Assembly (NCBI GenBank): GCA_019750465.1
Contig: JAIEOP010000194.1
Coordinates: 1-43,313 of the forward strand
DNA from: Acetobacteraceae bacterium
Lineage (GTDB): Bacteria; Pseudomonadota; Alphaproteobacteria; Acetobacterales; Acetobacteraceae
Length of the DNA stretch: 43,313 nt
Direction of reading: 5' to 3'
The position numbers were made by a program, and so were the translations under genes. The notes beneath the pieces were generated by a model. It made no database searches. It saw nothing but the letters and a program-made list of their open reading frames with translations, and was not told where the DNA came from. Shown here piece by piece: positions 12,241 to 28,173 of this stretch; positions within the stretch are counted from its first letter, which is position 1; each line of letters opens with the position of its first letter.

Positions 12241-12729
12241 ATGCCGAGCATCAATCTGCCTGCCGCCGGCCATGCCGGCCCCGTCGTTCCCGGAGGGCAT
12301 GCCTACCAGCCCTTCGCCAACGCCGGCTTCGTCAGGCTCGTGCAGGACGCCTTCGCCATCATCACGCCGCGCATCACCGGCCACGCGCCGTGCAACGCCG
12401 CGTTCCGGGCGCTGCCGAACGGGCGGACCTTCGCCGCCCTCTGGGTCGATCCCGCGATCTGGATCAACTTCGATCCGCGCAACGTCTCGGGCGACTTCGG
12501 CGCCACCTCGGGCAACGACATCACCATCACCGCCTTCTCCCTCGGCATGGGGAAGTGGACGGTGGCGGCGACGCTGGTGCACGAGATGGCGCATGTGAAC
12601 GGCGCGCCGGGCAACACCCACGCCGCCGAGGGCACGCTGCGGAGCTGCCTGCTGGCGGACCACGAGAACCCCGCGATCATCGGCACGCGGCTGGACCCCG
12701 TGCTGCGCATCCGCACCGCCGCGGCGTGA
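12241..12729 (+). CDS. Putative zincin-like metalloprotein (HExxH)
   Basis: The start MPSINLPAAGHAG at 12241 is preceded by GGATGGGG; the longer frame overlaps the D-aminopeptidase gene. The 162-residue product has the motif LVHEMAH (H114-E115-xx-H118), the zinc-binding helix of metallopeptidases, followed by H127 and E130 (NTHAAEGT) as candidate third ligands. A beta-rich stretch precedes it (TFAALWVDPAIWINFDP, NDITITAFSLG). There are two cysteines (C51, C136) and no obvious signal peptide. I do not recognise the exact family; the core resembles minimal zincins of about 150 residues. The next gene starts one base after its stop and encodes a TIMP-like protein, so the two are surely co-translated. 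Peptidase activity is inferred from the motif only. Confidence 0.65.
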   Translation: MPSINLPAAGHAGPVVPGGHAYQPFANAGFVRLVQDAFAIITPRITGHAPCNAAFRALPNGRTFAALWVDPAIWINFDPRNVSGDFGATSGNDITITAFSLGMGKWTVAATLVHEMAHVNGAPGNTHAAEGTLRSCLLADHENPAIIGTRLDPVLRIRTAAA

Positions 12730-12730
12730 G

Positions 12731-13141
12731 ATGCGCGCCCTGCACACCGCCGCGCTGGCGGCCGCGGCCTGGCTGGCCGGCGCCTCCGCCGCCCAGGCCT
12801 GCCGTTGCATCGAACCCGAGGCGCCGGTTGCCTATCGTGCGGCCGGGGTGGTGGCGCTGGTGCGGGTGACCGAAGCCTCCGCGCCGGGTGCGGCCGGGGC
12901 GCAGGAGGCCGTGGCGGCGGTGGAGCGCGCGTGGAAGGCGCCGCTCGGCCCGGTGATCAGCCTCGCGACGGGCGGCGACTGTCCTTTCCTGCTGGAAGCG
13001 GGCGGGCGCTATCTGCTGTTCCTCGCGCCCGCCGAGGGAGCCGCGGCGCATGCCGCCTATCGCTGCCGCGGCAACCGGCCGGAGGCAGCGGCCGGGCCGG
13101 CATTGCGCTGGCTTGCGGCACATGGGCGACGGACGCGATGA
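12731..13141 (+). CDS. Secreted TIMP/NTR-like protein
   Basis: This 136-residue protein has a signal peptide (MRALHTAALAAAAWLAGASAAQA) whose predicted cut after Ala23 leaves an N-terminal Cys-Arg-Cys. Tissue inhibitors of metalloproteinases also begin with a mature Cys-x-Cys, and its first Cys chelates the target zinc. Four cysteines exist: C24, C26, C84 and C112, that is 1, 3, 61 and 89 in the mature form. This mirrors the 1-70 and 3-99 disulfide pattern of TIMP N-domains. A central VERAWKAPLGPVISLATGG..C..LLEAGGRYLLFL segment matches bacterial proteins annotated as TIMP-like. A lipobox is unlikely because the residues before Cys are AQA. It directly follows the HExxH gene (one base apart). 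Inhibitor function is inference. Confidence 0.75.
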   Translation: MRALHTAALAAAAWLAGASAAQACRCIEPEAPVAYRAAGVVALVRVTEASAPGAAGAQEAVAAVERAWKAPLGPVISLATGGDCPFLLEAGGRYLLFLAPAEGAAAHAAYRCRGNRPEAAAGPALRWLAAHGRRTR

Positions 13142-27460: not shown

Positions 27461-27748
27461 ATGGCGCTTTACAGCGTGGCGGAGGCGAAGAACCGGCTGC
27501 CCGCCTTAATCGCGGCGGCCGAGCGGGGCGAGGCGGTGACCATCACCCGGCACGGCAAGCCGGTGGTGGAGATCCGAGCCGTCGGGGCGCCGACGCCGGT
27601 GCGCAGGCGCAGCCCGGCCGAGGGCCTTGCCTGGCTGCAGGAGGAGTTGGCGAAGCTGAACCTGCCCCGCTCGGACGTAGACAATGTCGCGCTGATCGAT
27701 GAGATGCGCGAGGCGGATGTCGATCCCGGGATTGCCGACCGCTGGTGA
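27461..27748 (+). CDS. Phd/YefM-type antitoxin of a VapBC-like module
   Basis: This 95-residue protein opens MALYSVAEAKNRLPALIAAAERGEAVTITRHGKPVVEIR, the DNA-binding Phd/YefM fold, in which AEAK..L..L......G....ITR.GKPV is the family pattern. The C-terminal half (about 50-95) is a flexible, Pro- and Asp-containing tail that would wrap round the toxin. It binds its own promoter (see the palindrome at 27431-27447) and neutralises the PIN-domain toxin encoded next. Its stop TGA shares bases with the toxin GTG start. Confidence is high for the family. Confidence 0.88.
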   Translation: MALYSVAEAKNRLPALIAAAERGEAVTITRHGKPVVEIRAVGAPTPVRRRSPAEGLAWLQEELAKLNLPRSDVDNVALIDEMREADVDPGIADRW

Positions 27749-28173
27749 CCACGCTCGACGCCAGCGCACTCGCTTCGATCTTCATCGAGGATGCCCATAG
27801 CCCAACGGTGCGAGCCTGGCTGCGGGTCCAGTCGAGCGCGCCGGCCGTCAGCAGCTTCGCCGCGGCGGAATTCGCCGCGGTGGTGGGCAGGCGCCTCCGC
27901 ATGCGGCTGCTGCCGCGCGACGCTGCCGCGTCCCTGCTTGCCGTCTTCGACACGTGGCTGGCAGCCGAGGCCGAAGCGGTGGATGTCGTCCCCGAGGACC
28001 ACCACGTCGCGGCCACCTTCGTCCGCCGCTTCGATCTCGGCCTGCGCCTACCCGATGCGCTGCATCTCGCGGTGGCGCTGCGCCTCGGCCTGGAGCTGCT
28101 CACTTTCGATGCGCGCCAGGCCGCCGCGGCGCGGGCGCTCGGCGTGGCCTGCGACCCCGCCAGCGCGGCCTGA
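27745..28173 (+). CDS. vapC: PIN-domain ribonuclease toxin (VapC-like)
   Basis: A GTG at 27745 overlaps the antitoxin stop (GTGA). The 142-residue protein has the four acidic metal-binding residues of PIN domains: D5 (TLDASAL), E42 (AAAEFAA), D104 (LPDALHLA) and D122 (LTFDARQA). VapC toxins cleave tRNA or rRNA and stop growth when the antitoxin is degraded. The arrangement antitoxin-toxin with a 4-base overlap is standard. The module separates aspS from rnd and meets the aldo/keto reductase gene tail-to-tail, 6 bases apart. The RNA target is unknown. Confidence 0.88.
   Translation: MTTLDASALASIFIEDAHSPTVRAWLRVQSSAPAVSSFAAAEFAAVVGRRLRMRLLPRDAAASLLAVFDTWLAAEAEAVDVVPEDHHVAATFVRRFDLGLRLPDALHLAVALRLGLELLTFDARQAAAARALGVACDPASAA

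What the first reader, a model, noticed from the sequence alone, without database searches (positions are those of the whole stretch)
12241..13141. HExxH metalloprotein paired with a TIMP-like secreted protein
Two genes one base apart encode a small zincin-like protein (HEMAH at residues 114-118) and a secreted protein whose mature end is Cys-Arg-Cys, with four cysteines at 1, 3, 61 and 89. In TIMP N-domains the first Cys chelates the protease zinc and the disulfides are 1-70 and 3-99; the spacing of the later pair differs by one residue only (28 against 29). This suggests a bacterial protease/inhibitor (or protease/partner) couple, which I do not know as a described system. A caution is that the HExxH protein lacks a visible signal peptide, so it may be in another compartment.
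Basis: partly seen in the sequence, partly recalled or inferred. Interest (0 to 1): 0.72.

Follow-up and report, generated by a model that had tools for sequence, protein, structure and literature searches.

The report
Bacterial TIMP-like protein beside unrelated zincin
An alphaproteobacterium carries a real relative of animal metalloprotease inhibitors (TIMPs) right behind a gene for a small zinc-protease-like protein, but the two genes are neighbours in this genome only, so they are probably not a dedicated protease/inhibitor couple.

Summary
P0001 (12241-12729) has HEMAH at 114-118. P0002 (12731-13141), one base later, has an AQA|CRC signal-peptide end and cysteines at 1, 3, 61 and 89. P0002 is a genuine TIMP/NTR-fold protein: a profile of its bacterial family finds human TIMP-2 at 4e-9, and its predicted structure matches only TIMP/NTR domains at the top of the PDB list. 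P0001 belongs to a sparse, unnamed zincin family with invariant HExxH, a downstream Glu130 and two cysteines. It has no signal peptide and lacks the metzincin signature. The 'couple' is not supported. In 299 genomes of the family, 7 hold the zincin and 3 a TIMP-like match (one weak), and only this genome holds both. None of seven zincin loci has a TIMP-like gene within about 5-6 kb, and none of seven TIMP-like loci has this zincin. The flanking gene blocks lie apart in relatives. A bacterial metzincin/TIMP-like pair is already described (Mtz-Tim of Listeria), with both proteins secreted and linkage conserved, unlike here. Best reading: an exported TIMP-like protein with unknown partner, next to an unrelated, probably cytoplasmic small zincin.

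The parts
12241..12729 (+). Small zincin-like protein P0001 (162 aa), no signal peptide; H114/E115/H118 of HExxH, E130 the likely third metal ligand, conserved C51 and C136
12580..12594 (+). HEMAH motif (residues 114-118)
   Evidence: invariant in all 8 family members (H, E, H)
12628..12630 (+). Glu130 codon, candidate third zinc ligand (invariant AE)
   Evidence: E in 8 of 8; the alternative His127 only in 5 of 8
12731..13141 (+). Exported TIMP/NTR-like protein P0002 (136 aa; mature about 113 aa)
12731..12799 (+). Signal peptide of P0002 ending AQA, cut expected directly before Cys1
   Evidence: sequence; (-3/-1 residues fit signal peptidase I in 9 of 9 family members)
12800..12808 (+). Cys-Arg-Cys N-terminus of mature P0002

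Best explanation
These are two independent small proteins that happen to be adjacent, and probably co-transcribed, in this genome. P0002 is a Sec-exported member of a widespread bacterial TIMP/NTR family. Signal peptidase removes the signal peptide after AQA to leave Cys1 as the free N-terminus, and disulfides Cys1-Cys61 and Cys3-Cys89 clamp it to an OB-fold barrel (inferred by homology). It most likely acts as a periplasmic or extracellular binding/inhibitory protein toward an unidentified, possibly foreign, metalloenzyme. P0001 is a minimal gluzincin-like zinc peptidase: H114, H118 and E130 bind the metal and E115 is the general base (inferred). It belongs to a sparse family without signal peptides and so probably acts inside the cell. 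The two are not a dedicated protease/inhibitor couple.
For: Fold and family of P0002: profile hit to TIMP-2 at 4e-9, starting exactly at Cys1; the top 22 PDB fold matches are all TIMP or NTR; a leave-out HMM scores it 19.9 bits against at most 11.9 for 998 shuffles. P0001: homologues; invariant HExxH...E; predicted fold hits are zincins. Unlinked: (7 zincin loci and 7 TIMP-like loci, no shared neighbour); only the window's genome has both among 299 of its family. Neighbouring blocks are separate in relatives. No export signal in 7 of 8 P0001-family members; the eighth lacks its N-terminus.
Against: One-base spacing suggests translational coupling, and there is no terminator or promoter-like site between the genes (such a scan is weak in a 72% GC genome). 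The genome has no exact HExxHxxGxxH metzincin motif, so no obvious classical target for P0002 exists elsewhere in it. The two conserved Cys of P0001 would fit an oxidising compartment. The homologue sample is small.
Confidence: 0.7

Rival explanations
1. A dedicated couple: P0002 inhibits, or is cut by, P0001, as proposed for Listeria Mtz-Tim, with Cys1 at the zinc.
For: One-base spacing and same strand. P0002 keeps the TIMP N-terminal CxC with a signal-peptidase cut right before it. A metzincin/TIMP-like gene pair exists in Firmicutes. No metzincin motif elsewhere in this genome.
Against: No linkage in any relative and no co-occurrence. P0001 lacks a signal peptide and is not a metzincin: Gly at the third His position and no Met after the motif. 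Residue 2 is Arg rather than Thr/Ser, although an Arg2 TIMP-1 variant with a swapped AB loop still inhibits MMP-2 (PMC9409782).
Confidence: 0.12
2. P0002 protects the cell surface against foreign secreted metalloproteases of competitors or hosts, with no partner in its own genome.
For: Exported. The mature Cys1 N-terminus needed for metal chelation is conserved across the family. TIMP-like genes in seven other genomes stand alone, without a convincing HExxH metalloprotease gene nearby. No metzincin motif in the genome.
Against: No functional data. Family members are divergent (11-29% identity), and one is fused to TPR and pentapeptide repeats, which suggests other roles.
Confidence: 0.3
3. P0002 is an NTR-fold binding domain that inhibits nothing, as in agrin, netrins and complement C345C; the CxC is structural only.
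For: The best fold matches include agrin NtA and other non-inhibitory NTR domains. A domain fusion exists in a relative. Arg at position 2.
Against: The sequence profile prefers TIMPs over agrin (4e-9 against 0.66), and the Cys1 N-terminus is conserved.
Confidence: 0.4

Closest known systems
Bacterial TIMP-like/NTR proteins (Pfam TIMP PF00965 / NTR PF01759)
   Same: Signal peptide ending at CxC, WK(G) motif, two later cysteines, OB-fold; profile reaches TIMP-2 at 4e-9 and fold matches TIMPs
   Different: No N-TIMP third disulfide and no C-terminal domain; P0002 alone gives no Pfam hit; Arg at position 2
Mtz-Tim pair of Listeria monocytogenes (PMC8235301)
   Same: A zinc-peptidase gene followed directly by a TIMP-like gene
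   Different: Mtz is a secreted metzincin (HExxHxxGxxH/D plus Met-turn) and linkage is conserved across Firmicutes, often on mobile elements; here the zincin is no metzincin, has no signal peptide, and linkage is absent in relatives. No match of P0001 or P0002 in 50,697 phage records
Minigluzincins (abylysin, selecase) and aspzincins (Lys-N)
   Same: Small zincin fold with HExxH helix; top fold matches of P0001
   Different: Weak matches only (E 0.007 to 1, TM-scores about 0.3-0.5); no sequence similarity

Membership tests
TIMP/NTR family (P0002) | OB-fold N-TIMP/NTR domain | tested here: met
   top 22 PDB hits all TIMP/NTR, probability 1.00
TIMP/NTR family (P0002) | Mature N-terminal Cys-X-Cys directly after the signal peptide cut | tested here: met
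   (cut inferred from the AxA rule, not measured)
TIMP/NTR family (P0002) | Cys pairs 1-70 and 3-99 (TIMP numbering) | tested here: inconclusive
   cysteines present at equivalent places 61 and 89; bonds not shown
TIMP/NTR family (P0002) | Inhibits a metalloprotease through Cys1 at the zinc | not testable with these tools
   needs biochemistry
Zincin (P0001) | HExxH on a helix in a zincin fold | tested here: met
   (helix 105-119)
Metzincin (the class TIMPs inhibit) | HExxHxxGxxH/D plus Met-turn | tested here: not met
   HEMAHVNGAPG; the third His position is Gly124 in 8 of 8, and no Met follows in P0001
Gluzincin | Glu as third zinc ligand downstream of HExxH | tested here: inconclusive
   E130 invariant in 8 of 8, but ligand geometry was not examined
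Mtz-Tim-type pair | Conserved adjacency of the two genes | tested here: not met
Mtz-Tim-type pair | Protease carries a secretion signal | tested here: not met
   (hydropathy and sequence)

The most novel reading that the evidence does not exclude
A TIMP-fold protein that regulates a small non-metzincin (gluzincin-like) peptidase, as a recently assembled bacterial couple, with P0001 leaving the cell by an unrecognised route.
Probability: 0.1. Interest if true: 0.6.

Novelty: new member of a known kind. Interest (0 to 1): 0.33.

Why it matters
Bacterial TIMP-fold proteins are almost unstudied; the Listeria paper found no earlier record of bacterial proteins structurally similar to TIMPs. This one shows that they occur as solitary exported genes in Pseudomonadota with the metal-chelating N-terminus conserved, so whether they inhibit metalloproteases is directly testable. 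The zincin defines a small unnamed family. The pairing itself carries little weight.

Tried and rejected
Single-sequence searches with P0002 in 100 relatives gave only composition-driven false hits; the frames of L004-L007 show nothing TIMP-like. The Pfam TIMP model alone finds nothing credible in 150 family genomes. Viral, plasmid and phage collections hold no relative. SprT-like (PF10263) hits to four P0001 relatives are weak (best E 0.0045) and reflect the HExxH helix. PDB profile hits of P0001 (MrdA, TetR) are chance. A metzincin-like motif in L051 is an antisense reading of the TIMP gene itself.

Full report
Observation. The two frames are exactly as described. P0001 runs 12241-12729 (162 aa, HEMAH at 114-118). 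P0002 starts one base after its stop and runs 12731-13141 (136 aa), with a signal-peptide-like N-terminus ending AQA, then CRC, and cysteines at mature positions 1, 3, 61 and 89. The codon statistics of P0001 (third-position GC 0.94) look native to the window. P0002 is less biased (0.84), and an antisense ORF shares P0001's third positions, but protein homology fixes the strand.

What P0002 is. Pfam, NCBIfam and PHROGs give nothing significant for P0002 alone. A generic bacterial TIMP-like consensus, used only as a probe, found P0002 as its best hit (E 1.3e-14) plus matches in eleven other genomes of the phylum, some of them weak. Eight rows aligned give a profile that finds human TIMP-2 at 4e-9, with the match starting at Cys1; TIMP-3 and TIMP-1 follow. 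Because the homologues were gathered with a remembered consensus, I ran two further checks. An HMM built without P0002 scores P0002 at 19.9 bits against a maximum of 11.9 for 998 shuffles that kept its first 24 residues. The predicted structure (pLDDT 86.5, pTM 0.75) has TIMPs, agrin NtA and the PCOLCE NTR domain as its top 22 PDB matches, all at probability 1.00. TIMP-like is therefore shown at the level of fold and family. In 9 of 9 family members the residues at -3 and -1 before CxC fit signal peptidase I. The free Cys1 N-terminus on which TIMP inhibition rests is thus conserved; that the cut falls there is inferred. Position 2 is Arg, where most relatives have Ser. Residue 2 enters the S1' pocket in MMP/TIMP complexes (PMC9409782).

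What P0001 is. Its family was collected by profile: six other genomes of the window's family and a Methylobacterium copy whose N-terminal part is broken by stop codons. It was rare or weak in the rest of the class and phylum. C51, F55, L58, HExxH, G121, G124, A129-E130 and C136 are invariant in eight sequences. H127, the other candidate ligand, is not (5 of 8). A gluzincin-like H-H-E site is therefore the best guess (inferred). The model (pLDDT 76.5) places the motif on helix 105-119, and its PDB matches are almost all zincins: Lys-N, abylysin, selecase and M1 aminopeptidases. None is strong. It is not a metzincin. No member whose N-terminus is present starts with a signal peptide.

Are they a couple? 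The linkage test fails. Searching all frames of about 12 kb around seven zincin loci and seven TIMP-like loci with both profiles, only the window has both. Among 299 genomes of the family, 7 have the zincin and 3 have a TIMP-like match, one of them weak. Only the window's genome has both. In relatives the upstream block (HtrA-like serine protease and the PF00144 aminopeptidase-like gene; both together in one relative, the latter alone detected in another) and the downstream block (DoxX-like and OpgC) occur in different places without the pair, so the adjacency looks like a local rearrangement or insertion. Compartments also disagree. In favour of a couple there remain the one-base spacing, the lack of a recognisable terminator or promoter between the genes (weak in this GC range), and the absence of any exact HExxHxxGxxH motif in the 95%-complete genome.

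Comparison with the known. There the metzincin is secreted and cleaves the TIMP-like lipoprotein (PMC8235301). The window pair shares the gene order only; it fails the metzincin, secretion and conserved-linkage tests. In the Pseudomonadota sampled here TIMP-like genes are solitary, and one is fused to TPR and pentapeptide repeats.

Verdict. The sequence observation is confirmed. The TIMP-like and zincin-like calls are supported. The couple is probably coincidental. The complex was not modelled.

Noticed in passing
window 27461-28173 (+): Overlapping Phd/YefM-type antitoxin and PIN-domain toxin genes: an ordinary type II toxin-antitoxin pair.
   Followed up: partly
L043:1321-2745: In a relative (G331) the TIMP-like domain is the N-terminus of a 475-residue frame that continues with a TPR-like stretch and pentapeptide repeats: an unusual domain combination.
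   Followed up: partly
L044:1000-1689 (-): A genome of the same genus has an exported protein weakly like the TIMP-like family (E 0.006) whose mature end would be a single Cys (ACIAYRP) rather than CxC: possibly a degenerate relative.
   Followed up: no
L008:5840-6351: Methylobacterium sp. BTF04 carries a close relative of P0001 whose N-terminal part appears frame-shifted: possibly a decaying gene.
   Followed up: partly
window 12303-12716 (-): Long antisense ORF opposite P0001 with stronger third-position GC bias than the real gene; an automatic gene finder could call the wrong strand here.
   Followed up: yes
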